Shown: positions 1 through 14,404 of the stretch, piece after piece | Numbering within the stretch: position 1 is the stretch's first letter | How the letters are laid out: each line of letters opens with the position of its first letter | Assembly: GCA_002923315.1 (NCBI GenBank) | Contig: BEHM01000002.1 | Coordinates: forward strand, 1-64,000 | Reading direction: 5' to 3' | Length of the DNA: 64,000 nt | DNA from: a bacterium HR10 | GTDB taxonomy: Bacteria > Acidobacteriota > Blastocatellia > HR10 | Made by a program: the position numbers and the translations under genes | The notes under the pieces: generated by a model | The model's input: the letters and a program-made list of their open reading frames with translations, nothing else | The model's database searches: none | What the model was told of the DNA's origin: nothing

Positions 1-251
1 AATTGACATCCTGTGGTCCTTGGCCATGTCCGCCTCCGGTGTTTCTCCCGTGACTTCGATCTCTCCCCATATCAGGAGGACGCCCCGTCGCTCCCAAAGT
101 TCCCTAGGCCCCTCCCCCTGTATCTGCCAGTCCCTGAAGCCGCCCCTCATGCCCAGCCAAAAAATACCGCCCAGTGCCAGAATCCGCGTCTCCCCTCACA
201 TGCCAACGCCTAATCCCCACGGCCTCATCGGCACCCGATCGGAGGTCCTTC

Positions 252-1625
252 TCATCGAACGTCGTACCGATCAAAGCGAAGGAACGCCAGCGCGATCAGG
301 AAGCCCCACTCCGTGAGCAAGAGCGATACAGGCCACCGGATCGCGCGCACGCGTTCTTTCATGGAGCGCGCCGGAGCCGAGAATGGAGGCGGACGGAACG
401 GCTCACCATGATCCGGGGTTTGAATCCATGGTTTGTCTCGGGCGAACGCGGCGAAGCTCTGAGGCATGAAGGACTCTGCGTCGTATCGCCTCACGGCCTC
501 TAGGAACATTCGGTAATCTTCTGGTCCCGTGCCGCAGAGGTCTCCCAGGGCCGCTTGGAACGCTCCATACGGCGAGATGGATAGGAGCCCTAGTGCCATG
601 CGCTGCTGTTGCTCGACGTGACGCTCGCGGTCATGAATCACGCGCTCGATTCTCTCGCGCCTTCGAGCATTCCAGCGCCTCTTGATCTCGAGATACGCGT
701 TCCATCCCGTCTCGACATCCGCATTTTGAGCCCTCAGTGCGGCCGCCATCTCTCTGTGTTCGGATAATTCACCCCGGGTCACCTCCTGCTGCCGAGTGAG
801 CAGCTCGCGTCGAAAGACTTGGTTTGGTGATACGGGCCGCAAGGAAGCGGCCAGCAGAGGCGCAAGGCTCGGCCAGATCACGATCGCCGCGACCCAGGCA
901 GCTAGAGAGAGGGTGAGGGCCGCCGACGCTGTCCGCACGAGTGTGGAGATCGCGATACCGAGCGTCGTGAAGACTCCGGCGCTCAGAAAGGCGATGGTGG
1001 TGATCAGGGTCAGCTCAAGCAGTCGCTCAGCAGAAGGCTCGAAGACCCCACCGCCGAAGATCGTCACCAAGATCACATAAAGCGCCACACCGTAAAAGAG
1101 CACGACCCCCGTGAGCAACAGCGCTCCCACGAGCTTCGCTGTCAGAACCATGCGCCGCGCTATCGGCGCCGACAGGATCAGCCGGAGGGTCCCGTGTTCC
1201 CGCTCTCCCACAACGGCATCGTGAGTCAACAATACGGCCATCAGCGTGACGATCAGGCCGATGATCGTGCTTAAGTCCGGCATGCGAGAAAGCGCGTCAA
1301 GAGGTCGCAAGTCTTCGATGGATGGAGCCGCGGAGACTGATCCGAGAGCAAGCGTCACCTCATCCGGCAGTCGGCCGTAGAGGCCATTGAAGATCAAGAA
1401 CAGGGGTGGAACCGGACGGGAAATAACGGTCACTTGCTCGTGCATCTCAGAGGGGCGAAGGACCTGACGGCTGATGCGATCTTCAAGAAGCTGCTGATAG
1501 CGATGCGCCTGAACGTAGGCGCTGAGAGGGATGAAAAGAGTCAGGGCTGCCAGGGCACAGAAAAGCGTGAAGTTCGTCGCTCCTTCCTGAAGCTCTCGAC
1601 GAAGGACAATCCAGAGCACCTTCAT
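252..1625 (-). CDS. ABC-2 type transporter permease
   Basis: ORF with TM segments and the ABC-2 permease pattern 'LTHDAVVGEREHGTLRLILSAPIARRMVLTAKLVGALLLTG'. Internal ATG at 1625 overlaps the stop of the upstream permease (ATGA). Confidence 0.85.
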   Translation of the reverse strand: MKVLWIVLRRELQEGATNFTLFCALAALTLFIPLSAYVQAHRYQQLLEDRISRQVLRPSEMHEQVTVISRPVPPLFLIFNGLYGRLPDEVTLALGSVSAAPSIEDLRPLDALSRMPDLSTIIGLIVTLMAVLLTHDAVVGEREHGTLRLILSAPIARRMVLTAKLVGALLLTGVVLFYGVALYVILVTIFGGGVFEPSAERLLELTLITTIAFLSAGVFTTLGIAISTLVRTASAALTLSLAAWVAAIVIWPSLAPLLAASLRPVSPNQVFRRELLTRQQEVTRGELSEHREMAAALRAQNADVETGWNAYLEIKRRWNARRRERIERVIHDRERHVEQQQRMALGLLSISPYGAFQAALGDLCGTGPEDYRMFLEAVRRYDAESFMPQSFAAFARDKPWIQTPDHGEPFRPPPFSAPARSMKERVRAIRWPVSLLLTEWGFLIALAFLRFDRYDVR

Positions 1626-2959
1626 CTCACATCGTACTGCTCGAATCGCCAGTAAGCCGCCACTCCGGCGATCGCCCACCACAGGGCGATCGAGATCAAG
1701 GCTGGTATCGCCGCGCGCGTGCTCTCAGCGACCGATCCCGGCTGTCGTTGGAGCGAAGCCGTTCGTCTCGCCGCCTCTTGAAGCGCCTTCGTGGATTCCT
1801 CCGGTGAGGCCTCGAACCGGCGTTTGTACGCATCGAGCATAAGATCACGGCCCGCGCGAAGGACGTTCAGATGAGCATGATAAGCACGCACGCCCGTGCC
1901 GGCCAGATCGCTCAGGCCGAAGGCGAGAGCCGTGGCCGGAGAGAGCATTCCAATACGGCGCGCGAGAGAGAGCTGCTCGCCCTTTCGCGCGAGATATTCG
2001 TTCATGAGTTGCCGATCCATCTCAAGGAGACGGATCACATAGATCGCGCGCCTCGGGTCGGAGACCAGCTCTCCTTGTGATCGCGCTTCGGCTTCGCGAA
2101 GGATCTGACGTCGCGCTTGTTCGATTCGCGCCCTGGTTTGTGTATACGTCGGCGCGGGGGAGAAGACCTCGGCGACCCGCGTCATCCCTTCGGGGAGCAC
2201 GATCACCACCGCAGCCCAGAAGAATGCGCCCAGGATGACGGCCGTCCTCGTCCGAGTCGTGATCGTCGAGATCAACAGCCCGAAATGGACGAAAGCGAGG
2301 CCATAGATAGCGCTTCCCAGACCAATGAGCAAAAGGCGCATGATCTCGCTCTCGTTCCGGAACAATCCGTAGATGACGGAGAGAAAGACGACGGCGCTCG
2401 CATACGCGACGACCATGGGCACCAGCAGGCTCGCCGAAGCACCCAACATCTTCCCCAAGAGCACGTGGCGTCGGCTCAGGGGATTCGCCAGGACCATTCG
2501 CAGCGTCGCCGCTTCTTTCTCGCGAGTGAGGACGTCCACCGACAAAAAGAGCGCGAGCAAAGACACGATGATCTTCACGACGAAGGCGAGATCGGGGATC
2601 GGAGAGAGCGCTCGAATGGCCGCCTCTTGAGGCTGGCCGATGAGGATCGTCGTGGCCAACGTCACCGGACGATCGAGATCTCCCTCCAGCCCCTTGACCA
2701 AAACTGCTAGTGAGGTGGGCGGCGGCATCGGAGGATCGTGCCCCACGCCGAGGCTTTCATAGAAGTGACCGCCGCGGAGCTCGTATCGAACGACGCCGCC
2801 GACAATGGGATCGCGCTGAGCCGTTTGATTCGCGGTCCAATTCACGAGCCGCTGCTGATAATCCTGAGCGAGCAAATGGGCGGAGATGAGAAAAAGGGCT
2901 ATCAGGATCACAAGCGCTGCCAGAGCCTTCAGGTTCCGAATATTCGCTGCGATCTCCAT
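1622..2959 (-). CDS. ABC-2 type transporter permease (paralogue of the adjacent permease)
   Basis: 'FLSVDVLTREKEAATLRMVLANPLSRRHVLLGKMLGASASLLVPM' matches the pattern in the neighbouring ORF. Start chosen at MEIAANIRNLKALAALVILIALFL. Confidence 0.85.
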   Translation of the reverse strand: MEIAANIRNLKALAALVILIALFLISAHLLAQDYQQRLVNWTANQTAQRDPIVGGVVRYELRGGHFYESLGVGHDPPMPPPTSLAVLVKGLEGDLDRPVTLATTILIGQPQEAAIRALSPIPDLAFVVKIIVSLLALFLSVDVLTREKEAATLRMVLANPLSRRHVLLGKMLGASASLLVPMVVAYASAVVFLSVIYGLFRNESEIMRLLLIGLGSAIYGLAFVHFGLLISTITTRTRTAVILGAFFWAAVVIVLPEGMTRVAEVFSPAPTYTQTRARIEQARRQILREAEARSQGELVSDPRRAIYVIRLLEMDRQLMNEYLARKGEQLSLARRIGMLSPATALAFGLSDLAGTGVRAYHAHLNVLRAGRDLMLDAYKRRFEASPEESTKALQEAARRTASLQRQPGSVAESTRAAIPALISIALWWAIAGVAAYWRFEQYDVR

Positions 2960-3146
2960 CCTAGCGATGCACAATGTCGGAGAAGAGGCCCACCACGGCA
3001 TCTCTCACCTCCAAGAGCGAGGGGACCTCCGTTTATTCGAGCTGCCGGATTCCCCCACATCCCGCAGGCGAGCGGTCGAGACCATCGCCGTGTGCGAAAC
3101 ACATCCTTTGATCAATTCCCGGGCTTCGCTCTGGTGCCTCTCCCCG

Positions 3147-3365
3147 TTACGGATAAATGGGGGGATCATCTTTTATGCACAATCCACAGCCCTGACAGCC
3201 ATAAGGATTGTTGCAAAAGCACTGTCGGCCGCAGTCGCTTCCCGTCGTGCATACGAGGAACTCGCATCCCCCCTCCGCCCTCGCCGTCGTTGGGGCATTC
3301 AGTTGTACGATCGAGAGCATGATCATCAGCCCAGTTAGAATCGCCCACATGGTGGAACCTTTCAT
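3147..3365 (-). CDS. Small secreted cysteine-rich peptide (72 aa, 8 Cys after a signal-peptide-like N-terminus)
   Basis: MKGSTMWAILTGLMIMLSIVQLNAPTTARA then EGGCEFLVCTTGSDCGRQCFCNNPYGCQGCGLCIKDDPPIYP. A strong SD-like AGGTGAGGGGG lies a few nt upstream of the ATG. The ORF sits inside an otherwise co-directional operon. Confidence 0.75.
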   Translation of the reverse strand: MKGSTMWAILTGLMIMLSIVQLNAPTTARAEGGCEFLVCTTGSDCGRQCFCNNPYGCQGCGLCIKDDPPIYP

Positions 3366-3396
3366 ATTGACCCCCTCACCTTTTGGAAGTGGCGAA

Positions 3397-3870
3397 CTAT
3401 TGCTTTCTCGCTGACGCCAGAATGTAAAAGCAGGATAGAATCAACAGGCCGTTTCTGAAGAAGTATCCCCAGCTAACCGGTTCCATAGCTCCGGGGAAAC
3501 AACCGCATTCCACCGGACGTCCTTGGAGGATTGCTATAGCCGTGACTCCCGTGAAGATCAGAAGCAACGTCGCAAGCGCACCTGCAATGATGCTCACCCG
3601 CCATCTGACCATCATCATTAAACCCAGCGTTATTTCGATCCATGGGAGAGCGAGACCGGCAGCATTGATGATCAGCGATGGCAAAAATCCGTAGCTCATC
3701 AAGGCATCTGAAAATTGGCTCCAATAGATCACCTTTAGTGAACCCGAGGCGACGAAAGCGATGCCCACCGTGACGCAGAGGAGAGGAACGAGGTGGTTCG
3801 TGAGCTGCTGCTTCCATAGGTGCCGTCGGGCTATACGATTCCGAGCTGATTGTCCCTCGGTCCGATTCAC
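3397..3870 (-). CDS. MauE/DoxX-like redox-associated membrane protein
   Basis: Four-TM pattern with 'FVASGSLKVIYWSQFSDALMSYGFLP' and 'VECGCFPG', typical of MauE/DoxX-like proteins. Start overlaps the stop of the upstream redoxin ORF. Confidence 0.75.
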   Translation of the reverse strand: MNRTEGQSARNRIARRHLWKQQLTNHLVPLLCVTVGIAFVASGSLKVIYWSQFSDALMSYGFLPSLIINAAGLALPWIEITLGLMMMVRWRVSIIAGALATLLLIFTGVTAIAILQGRPVECGCFPGAMEPVSWGYFFRNGLLILSCFYILASARKQ

Positions 3871-4490
3871 CCTCCCTCCCTCGCTGAGAATCTGATGGAG
3901 AAATATCTCTCAACGCTTTGGCGCTGTTCACCTTGAAGTGCTCCGAGCCACACTGCCCTGACCACGCCGCCGGTGCCGACTGCGATTGTTTGAGGCACGA
4001 TGGAAAATTTATAGTTCACACGGTCGCGCGGGTCGGGCTCAGCGATCACGGTGAAGTCGCTCATGTTGACGCCATGCTCATGGAGATATTGCTGAACTCC
4101 TCTTGGGTCCACAGATACGAAGACGAAACGATAATGCCGCTCATCGAGCGCTTCGAGCAGGACTCTCCAATTCGCCATATTCAGTTCGCACCATCTACAT
4201 CCGGGAGAGAAGACAAACAAGATCGTTTCGCGCGACGGGTCATCATAGCGAATAGTCAGCTGGCGACCTGAAGGATCCAGGCCGCGTAGCGGAGGCAACG
4301 TGTCTCCTGGCTTCAACCGTATCGCTTCGGTTCGAAGAGCGAGATCCCGTTTGAGCTGTTGGTTCTGGAGCATCAGCGCGAGATTGCAAACCAGGAGTAT
4401 GATTCCAAACGAAGCGAGGAGAATTCCCATCTTCGGTTCGATCTGCCAGGACCTCGCTCGAAACCATTGCTCAATACGTTGTCCTCGCAT
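3867..4490 (-). CDS. TlpA/MauD-like membrane-anchored thioredoxin-fold redoxin
   Basis: N-terminal TM, then 'LKPGDTLPPLRGLDPSGRQLTI...FVFSPGCRWCELNMANW' with a CxxC active site and the cis-Pro region 'SIVPQTIAVG'. Confidence 0.8.
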   Translation of the reverse strand: MRGQRIEQWFRARSWQIEPKMGILLASFGIILLVCNLALMLQNQQLKRDLALRTEAIRLKPGDTLPPLRGLDPSGRQLTIRYDDPSRETILFVFSPGCRWCELNMANWRVLLEALDERHYRFVFVSVDPRGVQQYLHEHGVNMSDFTVIAEPDPRDRVNYKFSIVPQTIAVGTGGVVRAVWLGALQGEQRQSVERYFSIRFSAREGG

Positions 4491-4652: not shown

Positions 4653-5112
4653 TGCTCGTGCGGGGGTGGGAGCCGGCCTTCAATGGGGTGGTGACGGCCG
4701 AGCGGGCGGGGAGAATTCGCCTGAGGGCCTGTCTCCTTCGGTTCCGTTAGGGCCACCTGAGCCTCCTGTGCCTTGGCACGCGTTTCTGGGAGCGAATGAT
4801 GCTCATCGCGGTCGGACAGAGTAATTATGGCATGGCCAAGGATCAATCCACCGAATTCTTCGGTGAGTTGCACCAGACGGCCGCCGTGCGCGACGACCGA
4901 CGGCGGGAAGTATTGATGGCTGTGCTCGCGCGTCGGGATGAGACGACGTCAGACTTGACCTCGCTCAACCCGGAGACGGCGACCAAAACGGCGTGCGCTC
5001 TCTGCACAACTCTATTCGGTAGTCGGCCGCTCGGGCGGCGGGCGCGTGAGGGAGCGGCGACCGAAATCGCCGTCTTCAGGCTCGTCTGACGCCGCGCCGT
5101 CTCGCTCGACCG

Positions 5113-6018
5113 TCAGGTGGAATCTGCTGAAATCCCCTGGTCTTCCTCCTGATTTCGGAGGGCACGCGAGGGGAACGCCCCCTCATATCGGCTCCATCGC
5201 AACAGCATGCCCCGCTTCAGAAATTCCGCTTTCGCACGCAGCGTGATGTCGCTTTGAAATCGGGGCTCGAACCGATGGTCGTAGACGTAGGCCTTCACCC
5301 GCAGCCGAAGGAACGGTCCGTATTCGAACCCATCTTGCAGAAGGACGACGACCGGTTTCGACAGCAGGATGTAGGGCGAACTGTAGGCCGCCTCGTAGCC
5401 GATCTCCAGGGCTTCAATCGGATCGGTATCGTGCGGAAGATAGAGGTCGGTGACGACCTGGCAGGTGGGGACGCCGGAGTTGGCGTTCCACGCCTTGCCG
5501 CTCAAAATCTCACTGTTGGGGATGGTCACGCGGGTGTCGTCGGGAGTGGTCAGTTTCGTGCTCCGCAAGCCGATGTGATCAATCTCCCCGTAAGCATCGC
5601 CGATTTTCACGCGGTCGCCAAGCTGATACGGACGGTCCACCAGAATGACGAGTCCACCGATGAGGTTCTTGACCAAGTCTTGTGCCCCGAGTCCCAGAGC
5701 GATCCCCACCGAGGCCAGCACGGCAAACAGGGTATCTCGCGAAGGCGCGAGAATGGCCAGAACGAGAACCCCACTGCCCAGCCAGAGGACGAAACGAAGG
5801 ATCGGCGCCAGCATCATGAAGAAGAAGCGGGCGCGCGGGGCTCGTTCGGCCAGAGCATACAGAGCCGCCGTGCTCATGCGAACGAGCGCATACGTTGCGG
5901 CGAGCACCAGAAGGACATAGACGATGGTCGTCGGTGAGACCCGGGTGATGATCTCAATGGGAGTCTCCGACGGCACCTGGTAGGCGGGTGGAGGAAAGAC
6001 GAGATGAGGTGTCGGCAT
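5113..6018 (-). CDS. MscS-family mechanosensitive ion channel
   Basis: '[72 protein letters not shown]' is the MscS core signature. Start at 6018 is preceded by GGGAGG. Confidence 0.92.
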
Positions 6019-6037
6019 AGGTGACCTCCCACCGTTC

Positions 6038-8842
6038 TCAGAGCAGATTGCGGCGATAGAGCGCTTCAACGGCTACGCGCAAGGCCTCCGGGCGCACCCG
6101 AAATCCCGGGCGGCCCGGATCCTGCTCGATGATCTCCCGCGCCAGAAGCTCGTCCATCTGGGATCGGCTAGCCGCCGTGCTCGTCTGGAAAACAATGGCG
6201 TGTTCTTCCGGCGTGAGGCTCCCATGCTGGAGAATGGCCACCAGGGTGAAGAGGTCGGAGAGATCAAGGTCCTCGATCACCGGTGAGAGGTCCGGAATCA
6301 TCACCGGCTTGAGATAGAGCACGCCGGCCTCGACCGCCTCGATATGGCCGAGCCAGATCTCAAAAGCCGCTCGATAACTTCCCCCGGACTCCCTGGCCAG
6401 AGCCTCAAAGTAGAATGTCTCCGGATCAACGGGACCTTGGAGGAAGCCCTTGAGGCGGGCCAACAGACCGCGCGGAGAGGGAGGCTCCGGGAATTGGATG
6501 CGCAACCCCGAGAGATTATGGCGCAAGAGGATGGCTTGACGAAGGTCATCCCGAGTGGCCGCGCCGATGGCGAGGCGATGGGAGAAGCTCGCGCCCAAAC
6601 TGACGACGGCATCAAGGAGGCGAAAGGCGACGTCGTTCATCGTGAACATCCAGAGCGTGGAGGAGCAGGTTGCGGCGATCAGGCGTTGCAAAGCCCGAAT
6701 TGCGCCGTAGTATCCCACCTGTCGCAGAAACGTGCGTTCCAGCTCCTCCAGGATCACAACGCGCCGTCGGGCCAGGAGGACCTCCTCCACTCGCGCTGCG
6801 TCGGGGGCTCCGATCAATGCGGCCAGGAACTCCCGCAACTGCGCTTCCGTCGTCAGTCGCTCGGTGAACTCTCCGCGGATGACGTCCAATCCGTCCAGCG
6901 CGCGCTTGAGTGCGCAATTGATCAAGCTCGTCTTTCCGCTCCCCCGCTGCCCCACGATCAGGAGCGAGACGGGCCGACCGGCTTCCCAGAGCGCCCGGGC
7001 TTCCGCAATGGCGGCCAGCTCTCGCTGACGACCGACGAGGAATCGCGGGTCCTGCACCGGCTCGAATCGGAACAGCCGACGATAGAGCGCCGGCAGGTCT
7101 ACTGTCATGAGGTCGAGCGTGAACTCCTCGGGCAGCAACGGGCGAACGATCACCCGCGCTGTGCCCTCTGTGGGGGCCGGTTTCCACCCAATGGCGATCA
7201 GGAAGCGCAGCGCGAGGCGCTCCAGGACGCCGGCCAGGCGGCGCAGGAACTGCACCGCCGCAGTGGCCGCGCTCCGGCTCGCCAACGCCACGGCGCGACG
7301 AAGCCCCTGCTGGGCGAGATAAGCGAGCACGCCGAGTCGGTGGCGACTGAAGACCATCCGCGCCTCAATGAAGACCGAGGCCAGCATCCGCGCCAGCCGC
7401 GAGCTTGCGGCCCTCTGCCAGTCCGGCGTCTCCCGACGCCGATATTCGAGCAGGGAGAGCGCATTCTGGAGCGCTTCTCGAACGACTTGCGCGTCGTCCT
7501 CGCGATCGGAGACGGCTCCTTCCAGAGCGAACGTCACGACCTCCCGCGCTCGTTCGATCTCTTGGACGATCTCTCGATGGTGCGCTTCGATCTCCTCCAA
7601 TATCCGCAGGACTTCGGAACGTCCGCTTCGCCAGAGGGTCTGGCGGAGCACGTCACGAGGGCGGAGGCGCCGTCGGGCCATTCGGCGGCGCGGCGCGGAC
7701 GAGAACCGAGCCCGGAGCTCGCAAAGAGCGGGGAGAGCCTGAAGCGCGCCGTCCAACTCGGCCTCCAGCTCCGACCATCGGCTCATGGCCGGAGCCAGGC
7801 TGGCCCGCGGGGCCGGGAAGTCCTCCTCCCCTTGCTGCTCGAGACGGCGTCGAATCCAGGCGATGGCTTCTTCCAGTTCGGACAGAAGATCCATCCGTTC
7901 GCGGGCCGCATTCTCCAGCAGGTTGTGGACGCTCGTCATGAAGCGATCTTCTGTCTGCTCCCAATGACGTTCCAATTGAAGCTCCGTCTCCGCAGCCCGC
8001 ATTTGGTCAACCCAGTGCGCTTGATGGCTCGCCCGACGCTTCTCGACGTCGGGAGACATCGGGCGCCGAGACCACACGAATTCTCGCGTCAGACGAGCGG
8101 CCACGTGCGGGAGCATGGCTTTGCTCCATTGACGCCATTGGGAGAGAATCGCCTCTCCCCTCTGGATCAGCTCGCGTCGCCGGGTCATCCATCGCTTCCG
8201 TTGGGCGTCGCGGCCCGCCGGAGGATGACCGGCGATCTCGGCATCGAAGGCCGCGCGGGAGGCTTCCCACGGTTCCCTCAGGGAGCGAAAAGCCTCGACT
8301 AGCAGGAGGAAGTACTGATCCTCCAGGTTCAGCCGCCGGAGCTGATGATCTCTCAGCGCGGCTTCCACAAGAGGCCGCACGAGCCGTGAACGGCGCCGAC
8401 GCTTGAGGGCGATCACCCATCGTCGCCATCCGCGCGGCCCCCATACGCCGAGTGCGCCGATGAGCTCCGGACCGGTGATCGGGATCGCCTCAGGCAAGGT
8501 TCTGATGGCATCTCCCACGCCCCGGTCGTAGATCTCAAGGGCCATCAGCGCCCGCCGCATCGGCTGCCTTCGTTCCCACTGGGAAATCGGCTCATGGAGC
8601 AGCGTTCGCGCTCTATCGGCGCGCGCGACCTGCACGGCGCGAAGATCCGGCGAATCGAAGGCAGGCGTCGAGAGCGATTGGGCGGCGCGCGCTTGCTCCT
8701 CGAGCAGACGCTGCACGTCTTGCCAACACCCCTCCAGCTCGGTCAGCAATCGGTCCACGACCGAGCGGAGACGCTCCTCGAATCTGGGCCAGCCCTCGGC
8801 CAGCGGAGAAGAAACAGTGGTTTTCACTTCGGCCTCTCGCAC
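6038..8842 (-). CDS. Large helical AAA/P-loop ATPase (934 aa) with C-terminal winged-helix-like region
   Basis: Walker A '[14 protein letters not shown]', Walker B-like '[11 protein letters not shown]', and an Arg/Glu-rich helical N-terminal ~600 aa. Ends 20 nt before the MscS start. Confidence 0.8.
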
Positions 8843-9171
8843 GTGAAGGATTCTATGGCTGACGGGGAAACGGCGTCAATGAACGTCGCGGGTGATCCGT
8901 TGCGCGTGAAGAAGCAGAGGCGACGGCGCGAGGGGGACTGTCCTTGGGTCTCCTCCGCGTGGCCCACTCGATCGTCGCATCGCGCGACGCATGCCCGAAG
9001 GGAAGCCCCACAGATCGCCCCACGGGGACTCTCCCAATCGCCTCGGACGTGGTCCCTTTCGTCCGAAGCTCCGTTCCTCTTGCGTGTTCAGGCGTTCCCT
9101 TTCCGTCCGCCGCGATCCGTGTTTGAATTGACCTGTCAACGGATCACTTGCCTTCAGATGAGGAGCGAGCT

Positions 9172-10047
9172 ATGGAGTGGACAGAGCGTGTGAGACGCAT
9201 CTTGGACTTTCATCTTTTCGACATCGGTGGACGGGCTATCACACCGGTGCAATTGGTGGTGGTCGTGATCACGCTGACACTCACCTTTGCGATCGCACGA
9301 CTTGCCGAGAAGCTTTGTGAGCAAAGATTCCTCCGTCACCTCGAAACCGGGGCTCGGTACACCTTAATCCGTTTGACCCAGTACGTGATTGGGGCCATAG
9401 GCATCGTGATCGCTCTGAAGGTGCTCAACATTGATCTGACGGCGATCGCGGTGGTGGCCGGTGTGCTTGGCGTGGGTATTGGCTTCGGCCTGCAAAATAT
9501 CGTGGCCAATTTCGTCGCCGGGCTGGTGCTGCTGTTTGAGCGGCCCATCAAGGTCAACGACCGCGTCACGGTTGAGAATATCGAAGGGAACGTCGTGAGC
9601 ATCAGCTTTCGCTCGACCACTATCGTGACCAACGATAACATCGCGGTCATCGTGCCGAATTCCGAATTCATCAATCGCACGGTCATCAACTGGTCGCACG
9701 GCGACCCCCGCGTGCGGATTCATGTGCCGGTGGGGGTCGCTTACGGCTCAGACGTAGAGCTGGTCACGCGCACGTTGCTGGACGTTGCCTTTGCGACGGA
9801 GAGGGTTCTTCGCGAACCGGCGCCGATGGTGTGGTTCAAGGAGTTCGGGGAGTCGTCGCTCAATTTCGAACTGTTGGTGTGGACCGATGAGCCGGAGAAA
9901 CACCTTCAGTTACGGAGCCGCCTCAACTATGCCATTGAGGCGACCTTCCGCGAGCGCGGCATTCAGATTCCATTCCCTCAGCGCGACCTGCACATCAAAT
10001 CGGCCGATGGACTCGCCCGGGCGCTGGGTCGCGTCTCCGGATCGTGA
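9172..10047 (+). CDS. MscS-family mechanosensitive ion channel
   Basis: 'VVAGVLGVGIGFGLQNIVANFVAGLVLLFERPIKVNDRVTVENIEGNVVSISFRSTTIVTNDNIAVIVPNSEFINRTV' MscS core. Start MEWTER preceded by GAGGAG. Confidence 0.93.
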   Translation: MEWTERVRRILDFHLFDIGGRAITPVQLVVVVITLTLTFAIARLAEKLCEQRFLRHLETGARYTLIRLTQYVIGAIGIVIALKVLNIDLTAIAVVAGVLGVGIGFGLQNIVANFVAGLVLLFERPIKVNDRVTVENIEGNVVSISFRSTTIVTNDNIAVIVPNSEFINRTVINWSHGDPRVRIHVPVGVAYGSDVELVTRTLLDVAFATERVLREPAPMVWFKEFGESSLNFELLVWTDEPEKHLQLRSRLNYAIEATFRERGIQIPFPQRDLHIKSADGLARALGRVSGS

Positions 10048-10277
10048 TGCGGAACAGCTCGCGTCATCGCGACCTTGCGGGGAGGTGCTCACACGCTGAG
10101 GATCCTGTGGCTTCCTCTGGGCCGCGTTGAGGGAAGAGGCTCGTATTGGGGCTTGGTCTCGTTCGTTCAACTCTGGGCCGGTAGCTTCCGATTCCCTTGC
10201 GCAGCCGCCTGCCGGTTCACATCTTCGGGACGGGGATGATACAATGAAATTTCCAGAACCTTTGTGTGGAGAGGTTC

Positions 10278-11750
10278 ATGGTGGATACGAACTTATGCCG
10301 TGCGAGGCTTCTCGTCGTATCGAATCGAAGCCCATATAGCTTTCGTCACATCGGACGCCGCTGGAGACCGGAGCGCGCGATCGGGGGATTGGTCGCCGCC
10401 GTCGAACCGGTGCTGCATCGGCTCGGTGGACTCTGGATTGCGTGGGGCGATCGGCCTGTCGCGGGATCGGAGAAGATGCCGGCCCCACCTGATGATCCCC
10501 GCTACCAGATCAAATTCGTCCCTCTTTCGAGCGAAGAGGTCGATGGGTATTACTTCGGATTCGCCAACGATGCGCTGTGGCCCCTCTGTCACTATTTTCT
10601 GGGCAAGTGCAATTTCTCCCGAGAGCACTGGCAGAGCTACAGGAACGTGAATCGAAAATTCGCCGCGGCGACGCTTGAGGAACTGGCCGCCGGAGATATC
10701 GTCTGGGTGCACGACTACCATCTGGCGCTCGTCCCGCAGTATATCCGGGAACGTGAACCGTCGGCGAAAATCGCTTACTTCTGGCATATCCCTTTCCCCG
10801 GCGTAGACCTCTTCCGTGCGCTGCCCTGGCGGAGAGAAATCCTTTGGGGATTGCTGAATAGTGACTTTGTGGGGTTCCATACCGAGACGTATGTTCGGAA
10901 TTTTCTCGACTGTGTTGAGGAGCTGGCGAAGATTCCGGTGGATCGCGAGCAGGGACGGGTGATCGTGGATGGCCGGAGGGTCAAAGTCCGCGCGGTGCCT
11001 CTGGGCGTAGACGTCGGCTATTGTCAGCGGCTGGCGAATTCGCCGGACATGCAGGCGAAAGCCAGAGCGATCCGACAGGCGTTGAGATCGGAGATCATTG
11101 CTCTGGGCGTGGAGCGGCTCGACTACACGAAGGGGATTCTCGAGCGCATCTGGGCGGTGGAGCGGTTGCTGGAGGCGCATCCCGAACTGAAGAGGAAGTT
11201 TTCACTCATTCAAATCGCCGCGCCGAGCCGCACGAAGGTGCCGGAATATGGCAGACTCAAGCGGCTGGTGGATGAGACCATCGGGCGCATTAACGGTCGT
11301 TTTGCCGAACTGGACTGGGTGCCGATCGTCTATTTCTCGAAGAGCGTGCCACGGCCGGAGTTGACGGCTTATTATCAAGCTGCCGACATCGCCCTGGTCA
11401 TTCCGCTCCGGGATGGGATGAACCTGGTGGCGAAAGAGTATGTCGCCTCGCGAACTGATTGCGACGGGGTGGTCATCCTCAGCGAGCTCGCCGGTGTCGC
11501 GGAAGAGTTTGACGAAGCCGTCTTGGTGAATCCATTCGACATTGACCAGGTCGCCGAAGCCATCCGACAAGCCATTGATCTAGATGTGGAGGAGAAACGT
11601 CGGCGCATGCAGCGACTGAGAGAGAAAGTGGAGCGTCGGGATCTGACGTGGTGGCTGGAGCAGATGCTGTATGAGTTCACGGCCCTCTCGGCAGGCGAAG
11701 AGTCGGGAGCCAGAGAAACAGCGTCCGCCGCTGGAGAGCACGTGGGATGA
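10278..11750 (+). CDS. otsA: GT20 alpha,alpha-trehalose-phosphate synthase-like enzyme
   Basis: 'IVWVHDYHLALVPQYIRE', 'IAYFWHIPFPGVDLFRALPWRREILWGLLNSDFVGFHTETY', 'PLRDGMNLVAKEYVASR'. GGAGAGG lies just upstream of this ATG. Confidence 0.9.
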   Translation: MVDTNLCRARLLVVSNRSPYSFRHIGRRWRPERAIGGLVAAVEPVLHRLGGLWIAWGDRPVAGSEKMPAPPDDPRYQIKFVPLSSEEVDGYYFGFANDALWPLCHYFLGKCNFSREHWQSYRNVNRKFAAATLEELAAGDIVWVHDYHLALVPQYIREREPSAKIAYFWHIPFPGVDLFRALPWRREILWGLLNSDFVGFHTETYVRNFLDCVEELAKIPVDREQGRVIVDGRRVKVRAVPLGVDVGYCQRLANSPDMQAKARAIRQALRSEIIALGVERLDYTKGILERIWAVERLLEAHPELKRKFSLIQIAAPSRTKVPEYGRLKRLVDETIGRINGRFAELDWVPIVYFSKSVPRPELTAYYQAADIALVIPLRDGMNLVAKEYVASRTDCDGVVILSELAGVAEEFDEAVLVNPFDIDQVAEAIRQAIDLDVEEKRRRMQRLREKVERRDLTWWLEQMLYEFTALSAGEESGARETASAAGEHVG

Positions 11751-12526
11751 GAGATACGGTGTCGGAACTCCTTGAACAGATCGGTCGTGTCAGACGGGCC
11801 TTTCTTCTGCTCGATTATGATGGGACGTTGGTGCCGATTGCTCCGACGCCGGAGCTAGCGCGTCCGACACCGGAGCTGCTGCGCATCCTGCGCCGTTTGG
11901 TCTCACGCGACCGATGGCAGGTGGCGATTGTCAGTGGGCGCCCCCTTCGAGAGCTGGAAGACCTGGTGCCCGTGGACGGACTTTTCTACGTCGGCGCGCA
12001 TGGGGCGGAGATGCGCGCGCCGAGAGGGGAGCGACAGCGCCTTGCGCCCGACGGCGCCCGAGAACATCTGAAGCTGCTTGCCCGGAAGCTGGATACGACG
12101 CTCACCGGCTGTCCCGGTTGTCAGCTCGAACACAAAGAGTTCAGTCTCGCCCTGCATTATCGGCAAGCCCGGGACGAGGTCGCCCAGACTGCTCTGGCAC
12201 ACTTCTTCCGGTTGGGGGAGCCTTTGGTCCGCACGGGAGCATTCGAGTGGCTCAAGGGGAAAAAAGTCCTCGAGCTGCGCCCTGCCCGGGTGAACAAGGG
12301 GCATGCCGTGCAGGAGCTCCTGAAACAATACGCCCGCCCGGAGGAACAACCTGTCTACATCGGAGATGACGAGACCGATGAGGATGCCTTCCGGATTCTG
12401 CGGGATTCTGGCATCACGGTTCTGGTCTCCCCCGAAGCGCGTCCAACCTGGGCGCGGTATCGGGTGGATTCTCCGCAGGAGGTCCATCGCCTCCTCGAAC
12501 TTCTAGCGGATATCTATGGGGCATGA
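11747..12526 (+). CDS. otsB: Trehalose-6-phosphate phosphatase (HAD superfamily)
   Basis: 'LLLDYDGTLVPIAPTP', 'AIVSGRPL', 'YIGDDETDEDAFRIL'. Overlaps otsA by 4 nt. Confidence 0.93.
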   Translation: MRDTVSELLEQIGRVRRAFLLLDYDGTLVPIAPTPELARPTPELLRILRRLVSRDRWQVAIVSGRPLRELEDLVPVDGLFYVGAHGAEMRAPRGERQRLAPDGAREHLKLLARKLDTTLTGCPGCQLEHKEFSLALHYRQARDEVAQTALAHFFRLGEPLVRTGAFEWLKGKKVLELRPARVNKGHAVQELLKQYARPEEQPVYIGDDETDEDAFRILRDSGITVLVSPEARPTWARYRVDSPQEVHRLLELLADIYGA

Positions 12527-13160
12527 GTTTCAGTTCTACAGCGAAGCCGGTCTTCCCGTCTGGACGGGGATCAAGGCATCCAACCTCCGTTCTCTCCAGA
12601 ACGGCATCCGCCGGGTCAGCGGCTCTTCCATCTTCTATCATGTGCACCACGCGCTGCTGCGGCGCCACTTCACGGCAGCCGAATACATGAATGACTTCGC
12701 CCGGTGGGTGTGGCTCCATCTGAATCAGCCTGCGCTCGCTGAGAAGCTGGCTTCCATAGACCCGTGGGACTTCACCTCCGTGCGGCAGGTGCGGGAGCGA
12801 TTGCTGGAGTATTTGCACACCTACGTGGGGGAGATGGAGACCTTCTTCCGGGTGCCCGAACGAGATGAGTTTCAGTTCCTTGAACTGCGCAGCGTCGTTT
12901 TCCCCACCGGATTGCGGGCGAGAGATCTGCGGAGCTTCCATGATGCCCTGCAGAAGGTGGGGCTGGGATCGCTCTTCTATCATCTGGTCGAAGCTCGATT
13001 GCGGCTCGGACGCCTCTCGAACGATTTCTCCGAATGGCTCTCGGAGCGCTTGAAGGAGGACGAGTTAGCGGAGCGCATCAACGACCTCAGTCCCTACGCG
13101 TATAATCTCTGGCAAATTCGCGACAAGATCGTTGAGATGATCGAGACGAGGCTCTCATGA
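12516..13160 (+). CDS. DUF5752-like protein with two tandem internal repeats
   Basis: Overlaps the otsB and TreT-like ORFs. Repeat 1 'FQFYSEAGLPVWTGIKASNLRSLQNGIRRVSGSSIFYHVHHALLR', repeat 2 'FQFLELRSVVFPTGLRARDLRSFHDALQKVGLGSLFYHLVEARLR'. Confidence 0.75.
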   Translation: MGHEFQFYSEAGLPVWTGIKASNLRSLQNGIRRVSGSSIFYHVHHALLRRHFTAAEYMNDFARWVWLHLNQPALAEKLASIDPWDFTSVRQVRERLLEYLHTYVGEMETFFRVPERDEFQFLELRSVVFPTGLRARDLRSFHDALQKVGLGSLFYHLVEARLRLGRLSNDFSEWLSERLKEDELAERINDLSPYAYNLWQIRDKIVEMIETRLS

Positions 13161-14404
13161 AGACGATCCGACTGGACGAATACGCTCCCTTGGTGGGCGC
13201 CGAGGAGATCGCGGAGATCCGGGCTCTTGCAGCGTGCTTAGGGTCGGTTTCGCTACAGCACATCAACTCCACGTCTCAGGGAGGAGGGGTCGCCGAGATC
13301 CTCTCCTGGCTCGTGCCGCTGATGCAAGACGTGGGTATAGACGCGCGCTGGACCGTCATTGAAGGATCGGCGGAGTTCTTTGAGGTCACCAAGGCTTTCC
13401 ACAACGCCTTGCACGGCATGTCGGTCGAGATCACCCCGGAGATGTTCGCGCTCTTCCGGGAGGTGGGCGAGCAGAATCTCCGCAAAGTGGACGGACAGGC
13501 GGATTTCATCGTGGTGCACGACCCGCAACCGCTGGGATTGATCGCGGCGAAGAGACAGGGGGGCGCTACAAAGTGGATCTGGCGCTGCCACATTGACCTG
13601 TCCGAAGCGGACCTGCGCGTGTGGGGATTTTTACGCACATACGTGGAGCGCTTCGATGCGGCTGTTTTTCACCTGCCCGAATACGCCAAGGAATTGCCTA
13701 TTGACCAGTTCATCCTTCCACCGGCGATTGATCCGCTGAGCGAGAAGAATCGCGAGCTGGACCCGTCGGAGGTGCAGGCGGTGCTGGAGCGTTTCGGCAT
13801 TGATCCTGAAAAGCCCATTGTGCTGCAGGTCTCACGGTTTGACCGGCTGAAAGACCCTGTGGGTGTGCTTGAGGCGTTTCGGCTTGTGCGACGCTCCCAC
13901 GAGTGCCAGCTCATACTGGCCGGAGGGAGCGCGGCAGATGATCCCGAAGGCGCACAAGTGCTGGCAGAGGTACGGGAGCGGGCGGAGAAGCTGCCGGATG
14001 TCCACATCCTGGACCTGCCGCCTACCAGTCATCGGGAGATCAACGCCTTACAGCGGGCGGCGGCGGTGGTGGTGCAGAAATCCATTCGGGAGGGCTTCGG
14101 TCTGGTGGTGACCGAAGCGATGTGGAAGGGCAAGCCCGTCGTGGGGAGCGCCGTGGGCGGCATTCGCCGTCAGATCATCCATGGCGTCACCGGGTTTTTG
14201 GCGCACACAGTAGAAGGCACGGCCTTCCGCATCCGGCAGCTCTTGAGCCATCCCGAGTTGGCTGCCCAGATGGGATGGGCCGCCCGGGAATATGTGCGGA
14301 CGAACTTTCTGCTCACCCAATATCTGAAGAACTGGCTTCTTCTCTTGTTGACCGTCAAGCACCCCTGGCGGGGATCGAAACAGTGGGCAGTGTTCGCCGC
14401 CTGA
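13157..14404 (+). CDS. GT4 glycosyltransferase, TreT/trehalose synthase-like
   Basis: 'LQHINSTSQGGGVAEILSWLVPLMQDVGIDARWTVIEGSAEFFEVTKAFHNALHG' and GT4 motif 'KSIREGFGLVVTEAMWKGKPVVGSAVGGIRRQI'. Confidence 0.88.
   Translation: MKTIRLDEYAPLVGAEEIAEIRALAACLGSVSLQHINSTSQGGGVAEILSWLVPLMQDVGIDARWTVIEGSAEFFEVTKAFHNALHGMSVEITPEMFALFREVGEQNLRKVDGQADFIVVHDPQPLGLIAAKRQGGATKWIWRCHIDLSEADLRVWGFLRTYVERFDAAVFHLPEYAKELPIDQFILPPAIDPLSEKNRELDPSEVQAVLERFGIDPEKPIVLQVSRFDRLKDPVGVLEAFRLVRRSHECQLILAGGSAADDPEGAQVLAEVRERAEKLPDVHILDLPPTSHREINALQRAAAVVVQKSIREGFGLVVTEAMWKGKPVVGSAVGGIRRQIIHGVTGFLAHTVEGTAFRIRQLLSHPELAAQMGWAAREYVRTNFLLTQYLKNWLLLLLTVKHPWRGSKQWAVFAA

What the first reader, a model, noticed from the sequence alone, without database searches (positions are those of the whole stretch)
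252..4490. Operon for an exported 8-cysteine peptide with a dedicated redox pair and two ABC-2 permeases
Seen: five co-directional minus-strand genes in the order TlpA/MauD-like redoxin (CRWC), MauE/DoxX-like membrane protein (CGC), a 72-aa pre-peptide, and two paralogous ABC-2 permeases. The first two ORFs overlap by 4 nt, as do the two permeases. The peptide has a signal-like N-terminus and a compact Cys core C-x4-C-x5-C-x3-C-x1-C-x5-C-x2-C-x2-C ending KDDPPIYP, with a strong SD. Established: MauD/MauE act in periplasmic disulfide formation for the Cys-rich MauA subunit. This peptide is too short to be MauA and no mauB is visible. Inference: the redoxin/MauE pair oxidises a small knottin-like secreted peptide (toxin, signal or metallophore-like), with the ABC system exporting it or giving self-protection.
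Basis: partly seen in the sequence, partly recalled or inferred. Interest (0 to 1): 0.72.

Follow-up and report, generated by a model that had tools for sequence, protein, structure and literature searches.

The report
Secreted cysteine-rich mini-protein with folding helpers
An uncultured Acidobacteriota bacterium carries genes for a tiny exported protein packed with cysteines, next to two genes that probably form its disulfide bridges and a likely ABC transporter; relatives carry the same kind of redox gene beside very different cysteine-rich mini-proteins, which points to a widespread and largely undescribed family of bacterial secreted mini-proteins, a few with cysteine spacing like plant knottins.

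Summary
In detail: redoxin (CRWC), MauE, a 72-aa 8-Cys pre-peptide and two ABC-2/DUF3526 permeases lie on the minus strand, with both 4-nt overlaps. The contig begins at window position 1, so the operon may run off its end. The peptide alone looks like an orphan, but its neighbourhood recurs. Of 41 regions, nearly all picked by redoxin similarity only, 30 have a co-directional small exported Cys-rich ORF within 1 kb; such ORFs are about 40 times denser there than further out. Six peptides in three other genomes share the window peptide's core, C-x3/4-C-x5/6-C-x2/3-C-x-C-x6-11-C; five of the six carry an S-x-x-Q-L leader motif, and four lie beside a redoxin. A profile of the core picks mostly knottins from the PDB, weakly. 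All three unfused MauE-redoxin pairs found in the class are followed by a Cys-rich exported protein; one (G148) repeats the whole plan with an FtsX-type ABC exporter. Most likely the peptide is Sec-exported, oxidised by redoxin/MauE and handled by an ABC exporter. What happens after folding, and the peptide's role, are inferred. MauE beside precursors with 8 or more Cys was already predicted in Streptomyces, so this is a new variant, not a new category.

The parts
3867..4490 (-). Redoxin (TlpA/MauD-like), 207 aa, N-terminal membrane anchor, CRWC active site and cis-Pro region (VPQT)
   Evidence: C-x-x-C and the P-x-T motif invariant in a 12-sequence alignment
3397..3870 (-). MauE family membrane protein, 157 aa, invariant C-x-C (CGC)
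   Evidence: PF07291 E=2.5e-23; C122 and C124 invariant in 5 MauE proteins
3147..3365 (-). 72-aa Cys-rich pre-peptide; leader with SIVQL motif; predicted mature part residues 31-72 (DNA 3150-3275) with 8 Cys
   Evidence: six core Cys (C34, C39, C45, C49, C51, C63) conserved in relatives
3366..3390 (-). Shine-Dalgarno-like region of the peptide (AAAAGGTGAGGGGGTCAAT before ATG)
   Evidence: sequence read
1622..2959 (-). ABC-2 permease with DUF3526 (here ABC2)
   Evidence: PF12679 E=4e-26, PF12040; closest relatives in G040, G029, G008
252..1625 (-). ABC-2 permease with DUF3526 (here ABC1)
   Evidence: PF12679 E=2.5e-28, PF12040; homologue next to the ABC2 homologue in G040
1..251 (-). Contig end just after ABC1; any further operon gene, such as an ATPase, is cut off here
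   Evidence: window = G000:C2:1-64000; no clear coding start in the 251-nt tail

Best explanation
The locus makes a secreted, disulfide-rich mini-protein with its own folding enzymes. The pre-peptide is exported by Sec (leader seen in the sequence, export inferred). In the periplasm the membrane-anchored redoxin (CRWC), with MauE (CGC) as its membrane partner, forms or proofreads the disulfides (inferred from linkage and the Mau precedent). The compact peptide, a six-Cys core with knottin-like spacing plus one extra Cys pair, is then moved out of the cell, or away from the producer's membrane, by an ABC transporter made of the two DUF3526 permeases and an ATPase not on this contig (inferred). 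Mature parts vary greatly between relatives while redoxin and leader stay recognisable, which suits a peptide acting on variable outside targets, most likely in competition between bacteria (inference).
For: Small exported Cys-rich ORFs cluster within 1 kb of redoxins of this family: 30 of 41 regions, density 0.47 against 0.012 per kb, 36 of 38 near ORFs on the redoxin's strand (also 35 of 67 against 2 of 67 antisense). Relatives of the window peptide with the same Cys core lie beside redoxins in G040, G382 and G392, most with an S-x-x-Q-L leader. All three unfused MauE-redoxin pairs found in the class precede a Cys-rich exported protein, one of them MauA-like. G148 has MauE, redoxin, Cys-rich peptide, FtsX permease and ATPase in a row. 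Redoxin loci with MacB-like or ABC-2 exporters: L112, L175, L178, L179, L180, L181. Precedents: dedicated oxidoreductases for bacteriocins (PMC4919988); Sec, DsbA then MacAB for a disulfide peptide (PMC5985334).
Against: No structure, expression or activity data; AlphaFold failed (pLDDT 53). Most redoxin-peptide loci lack MauE, and most MauE-redoxin fusions lack a small Cys-rich neighbour. The permeases start 187 nt after the peptide and no ATPase is visible; G040 has its permease homologues on another contig. ABC frequency near redoxins was not tested against background. TlpA-type redoxins can also be reductants.
Confidence: 0.55

Rival explanations
1. The peptide is a secreted metal-binding peptide (metallothionein-like or a metallophore part). 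The redoxin keeps its Cys reduced, and the ABC-2 permeases serve metal or sulfur handling.
For: C-x-C and C-x2-C-x2-C motifs in the window peptide; permeases belong to PF12679, a family that, from own knowledge, includes NosY of copper-enzyme maturation; TlpA-type redoxins can be reductants.
Against: The core Cys spacing resembles disulfide knottins; the C-x2-C-x2-C part is not conserved in relatives; unfused MauE-redoxin pairs also serve a MauA-like protein, a disulfide protein; Cys counts and spacing vary widely among relatives.
Confidence: 0.15
2. The peptide is oxidised as proposed, but the ABC permeases do not export it: they protect the producer or form an unrelated neighbouring unit.
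For: 187-nt gap before the permeases; G000 has several other DUF3526-type permease pairs on C11, C12 and C89; the C63 ATPase has lantibiotic-protection and drug-resistance ATPases among its top models, all below cut-off.
Against: ABC exporters of three types recur beside redoxin-peptide genes; MacB-type pumps export periplasmic disulfide peptides elsewhere (PMC5985334).
Confidence: 0.2
3. The peptide is a shortened methylamine-dehydrogenase light chain (MauA) or other amine dehydrogenase subunit, with MauE and a MauD-like redoxin in their classical role.
For: MauE is a true PF07291 member; a MauA-like protein (PF02975 E=9e-7) takes the same place in L033.
Against: No PF02975 match for the window peptide even at E up to 5; homologous peptides sit beside redoxins without MauE; no MauB match in the genome, though that search had no positive control.
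Confidence: 0.03
4. The small ORF is not a real gene and its Cys pattern is chance.
For: No close homologue by single-sequence search.
Against: Core Cys, leader motif and redoxin neighbour recur; SD-like site and 31-nt spacing to MauE.
Confidence: 0.04

Closest known systems
MauE/MauD-containing candidate RiPP families of Streptomyces (decRiPPter, PMC7794033)
   Same: MauE (once with MauD) beside a small precursor with at least 8 Cys and no other mau genes; proposed to modify the peptide.
   Different: Actinomycetes, not diderm Acidobacteriota; precursor sequences not comparable here (supplement not readable); the redoxin without MauE is the constant partner in Acidobacteriota.
mau maturation genes of methylamine dehydrogenase (MauE, MauD)
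   Same: MauE family membrane protein plus redoxin acting on an exported Cys-rich polypeptide.
   Different: The substrate here is a 72-aa peptide with no PF02975 match; MauB not found in this genome (no positive control).
Bacteriocins with dedicated thiol-disulfide oxidoreductases (pediocin PedC, sublancin BdbA; PMC4919988)
   Same: Small Cys peptide, thioredoxin-like folding enzyme and ABC transporter encoded together.
   Different: Sec-type leader and MauE/redoxin here; different ABC families; no activity known; Gram-positive producers there.
Sec, DsbA and MacAB-TolC route of an E. coli disulfide peptide (PMC5985334)
   Same: Sec export, periplasmic disulfides, ABC pump for the outer membrane; MacB-like permeases lie beside several redoxin-peptide loci.
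   Different: Window permeases are ABC-2/DUF3526, not MacB; no adaptor or TolC seen in the window operon.
Knottins / inhibitor cystine knots (squash and metallocarboxypeptidase inhibitors)
   Same: x5-C-x3-C-x-C part of the spacing; most PDB profile hits are knottins.
   Different: Loop 1 shorter, extra Cys pair, E-values weak (best 0.02), no structure; eukaryotic families.
NVEALA peptides of Bacteroidota (from memory, a lead only)
   Same: Small secreted peptides with a conserved leader and a Cys-rich variable end; 6-bladed propellers also occur beside the redoxin loci here (L185, L236).
   Different: No PF14055 match in this genome; the positive control rang in Bacteroides.

Membership tests
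MauE family (PF07291) | Profile match above the curated cut-off with the C-x-C motif | tested here: met
   83.2 bits against cut-off 27; C-x-C invariant in 5 proteins
Redoxin-associated exported Cys-rich peptides of Acidobacteriota (described here) | Small leader-bearing ORF with at least 5 Cys, within 1 kb of a redoxin of this family | tested here: met
   in the window MauE lies between redoxin and peptide
Redoxin-associated exported Cys-rich peptides of Acidobacteriota (described here) | S-x-x-Q-L leader motif of the Blastocatellia-type subset | tested here: met
   SIVQL; S/T-x-x-Q-L in 10 of 38 near-redoxin peptides against 2 of 112 Cys-poor ORFs
MauA / methylamine dehydrogenase light chain (PF02975) | Profile match | tested here: not met
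   no Pfam family at E up to 5 for the window peptide
mau cluster | MauB (PF06433) in the genome | tested here: inconclusive
   no match, but no control genome rang either
Knottin / inhibitor cystine knot | Six Cys with knottin-type spacing | tested here: inconclusive
   profile hits in the PDB mostly knottins, best E=0.02; Pfam Squash 0.025 for one alignment member only
Knottin / inhibitor cystine knot | Cystine-knot connectivity and fold | not testable with these tools
   AlphaFold model unusable; needs disulfide mapping or NMR
NVEALA (PF14055) | Profile match | tested here: not met
   no match in the genome, control rang in Bacteroides
Bacteriocin with dedicated thiol-disulfide oxidoreductase | Antibacterial activity of the mature peptide | not testable with these tools
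   needs an experiment
Bacteriocin with dedicated thiol-disulfide oxidoreductase | Peptide, oxidoreductase and ABC genes together | tested here: inconclusive
   together in the window and G148, but the ATPase is missing in the window and the permeases start after a 187-nt gap

The most novel reading that the evidence does not exclude
Acidobacteriota carry a large, hypervariable class of secreted disulfide mini-proteins, some of them true cystine knots, each made with its own periplasmic oxidation enzyme (sometimes with MauE) and moved out by a paired ABC exporter: a bacterial counterpart of plant and animal knottin arsenals.
Probability: 0.22. Interest if true: 0.85.

Novelty: new variant of a known kind. 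Interest (0 to 1): 0.62.

Why it matters
If right, a phylum that is abundant in soils and poorly cultured has a common route for making secreted disulfide-rich mini-proteins that the family libraries tested here miss, because the mature parts are short and variable. The redoxin neighbour is a simple handle for finding them. It would also give MauE a more general role as the membrane partner of dedicated oxidative-folding enzymes, outside methylamine dehydrogenase, and would make it testable whether knottin-like folds exist in bacteria.

Tried and rejected
The peptide as a single query in 58 relatives gave only noise; viral contigs and plasmids gave nothing. A 12-sequence redoxin alignment was too diverse for the pattern scan; the 3-sequence one found only L112-L114 among named genomes. 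AlphaFold of the mature peptide with one relative gave pLDDT 53, so no fold search was made. PADLOC showed no defence family. Many class-wide hits of the core profile are weak, often in frames with stops, and were not counted. Most other MauE hits in the class are 330-570 aa MauE-redoxin fusions without a small Cys-rich neighbour, so the three-of-three statement holds for unfused pairs only. The idea that contig C63 (NEW3-domain protein plus ATPase) continues directly from window position 1 was considered: the NEW3-ATPase pairing is also seen in G005 and G008, but the 251-nt tail of C2 shows no clear start of a NEW3 protein, so it is left open. A shortened MauA was rejected. Searches of open-licence papers found no report in Acidobacteriota; bacterial defensins of actinobacteria and myxobacteria are known (PMC8819291) and were not compared here.
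Full report
What is there. The window is the first 64 kb of contig C2 of an 88%-complete, 118-contig assembly. Its class is Blastocatellia (Acidobacteriota), judged from the named record of a same-class relative (G040 corresponds to JAHFUG010000419). MauE is a clear PF07291 member; both permeases are PF12679 with DUF3526; the redoxin is a weak AhpC-TSA match with CRWC; the 72-aa peptide matches nothing in Pfam (E up to 5) or NCBIfam (E up to 1). MauE to peptide is 31 nt and peptide to first permease 187 nt, so redoxin-MauE-peptide is the tight unit.

The peptide alone looks like an orphan: no convincing homologue in 58 relatives, and none of the four same-genus genomes searched has this MauE. 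The locus is therefore accessory in its genus.

The neighbourhood is not an orphan. Searching with the redoxin and reading the surrounding DNA showed a repeated pattern: a redoxin of this family with a small ORF beside it that has a hydrophobic leader and a Cys-rich rest. With a fixed, motif-blind rule (45-130 aa, basic start, hydrophobic leader, at least 5 Cys and 8% Cys in the rest), 35 of 67 redoxin loci have such an ORF on the same strand within 1.5 kb and 2 of 67 on the other strand. In 41 larger regions, 38 of 42 such ORFs fall within 1 kb of the redoxin, where 19% of the scanned sequence lies (binomial p=3e-23), and 30 of 41 regions have a co-directional one. All but one of these regions were chosen by redoxin similarity only; L237 was chosen after its peptide had been seen. 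Related genomes are not independent, so the p-value overstates the case, but the forty-fold density difference is seen in many families.

A leader motif. In Blastocatellia and a few other families the peptides share S-x-x-Q-L late in the leader (window SIVQL, L112 SLTQL, L093 SLTQL, L095 SVEQL, L175 SAAQL, L176 SARQL and others). S/T-x-x-Q-L is in 10 of 38 near-redoxin peptides against 2 of 112 comparable Cys-poor ORFs (p=2e-5). The motif was first noticed in part of the same data, so this is support rather than an independent test.

A core family for the window peptide. The window peptide, L112, two peptides of L175, L176 and two tandem peptides of L201 share C-x(3,4)-C-x(5,6)-C-x(2,3)-C-x-C-x(6-11)-C; the window's C57 and C60 are extra. 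The L201 pair, in the same genome as L176, has no redoxin beside it in the 14 kb read. Against shuffles that keep Cys in place, the window-L175a alignment is significant (p=0.0015), L175b and L176 nominally so (0.013, 0.008), and L112 and the L201 pair are not; for those the case rests on leader, spacing and, for L112, the neighbouring redoxin. A profile of five members against the PDB gives 29 hits, the great majority knottins (metallocarboxypeptidase inhibitors, squash trypsin inhibitors, designed cystine knots), best E=0.02. Pfam AtDEF-like (best 7e-4) and Squash (0.025) appear for alignment members other than the window peptide. This shows knottin-like spacing, not a knottin fold or common descent. 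AlphaFold gave no usable model.

MauE. Three unfused MauE-redoxin pairs were found in the class, and all three are followed by an exported Cys-rich ORF: the window; L033, where it is a MauA-like protein (PF02975 9e-7); and L059/L237, a peptide with 11 Cys. A MauE-redoxin fusion in L114 is followed by a Cys-rich protein with a type IX secretion tail. Most fused MauE-redoxin proteins in the class have no such neighbour. The MauE C-x-C and the redoxin C-x-x-C are invariant in the alignments.

ABC genes. L237 has MauE, redoxin, peptide, an FtsX-type permease and an ATPase of the LolD/MacB type in a row, the same plan as the window with a different exporter family. L178 has peptide, redoxin, MacB-like permease, HlyD-type adaptor and ATPase; L175, L179 and L181 have MacB-like permeases; L112 an ATPase; L180 an ATPase and an ABC-2 permease. 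G040, which holds the L112 peptide, also has the closest ABC2 homologue with an ABC1 homologue beside it, on another contig. The frequency of ABC genes near redoxins was not tested against a background. The ATPase for the window permeases is unknown: contig C63 carries a NEW3-domain protein and an ATPase 78-80% identical to those of the DUF3526 clusters in G005 and G008, near a contig edge.

Mechanism. Shown: gene order, family membership of MauE and permeases, recurrence of redoxin plus exported-looking Cys-rich peptide, conserved core Cys. Inferred: Sec export, oxidation by redoxin and MauE, ABC-driven release or self-protection, and the outside target. The oxidation step seems likely because unfused MauE-redoxin pairs sit beside Cys-rich exported proteins, one MauA-like, and because MauE has been linked to disulfide formation in that subunit (van der Palen et al. 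1997, as cited in PMC7794033). Export and self-protection cannot be separated here.

Prior knowledge. MauE, once with MauD, beside precursors with at least 8 Cys was predicted in Streptomyces RiPP candidates (PMC7794033). Dedicated oxidoreductases for bacteriocins are known (PMC4919988), as is Sec-DsbA-MacAB handling of a disulfide peptide (PMC5985334). I found no report of this in Acidobacteriota, though only open-licence papers could be searched. Hence a new variant of a known kind.

Noticed in passing
L099:6818-8458, L100:7328-8851, L101:7054-8475, L096:7237-8781 and, longer, L094:5957-7858, L103:4018-5979: Secreted-looking proteins of about 470-650 aa with no Pfam match directly follow many of the redoxins; they recur enough to be a partner of the redoxin-peptide system of unknown function.
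   Followed up: partly
L111 (G000:C12:15000-28000): 1101-1391, 4725-6617, 6505-7098: The window's own genome has a second redoxin of this family next to a 630-aa unnamed protein, with a 13-Cys exported-looking small ORF about 5 kb upstream.
   Followed up: no
L185:145-1227, L189:5102-6226, L236:2452-3576: Propeller-type genes beside redoxins (DUF5128, 6-bladed beta-propeller, matched in L185 and L236; L189 by resemblance only), recalling Bacteroidota peptide loci.
   Followed up: no
L182, L183, L184, L186 (peptides near redoxins): Peptides outside Blastocatellia often have an L-T-T-like end of the leader in place of S-x-x-Q-L, as if each lineage had its own leader motif.
   Followed up: no
L235:7070-8614, L236:7418-9001, L232:2-652: Proteins with a NEW3 domain (an OEP-like N-terminal part in L235) sit just before the ATPase of DUF3526 ABC clusters; possible transporter partner. 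Match in L236 by resemblance only.
   Followed up: partly
window 5113-6069 and 9148-10047, around 6038-8842: Two MscS-like channel genes flank a 934-aa P-loop protein (judged by reading only).
   Followed up: no
window 10266-14404: Apparent trehalose-related cluster (OtsA-like, OtsB-like, a small protein and a glycosyltransferase), judged by reading only.
   Followed up: no
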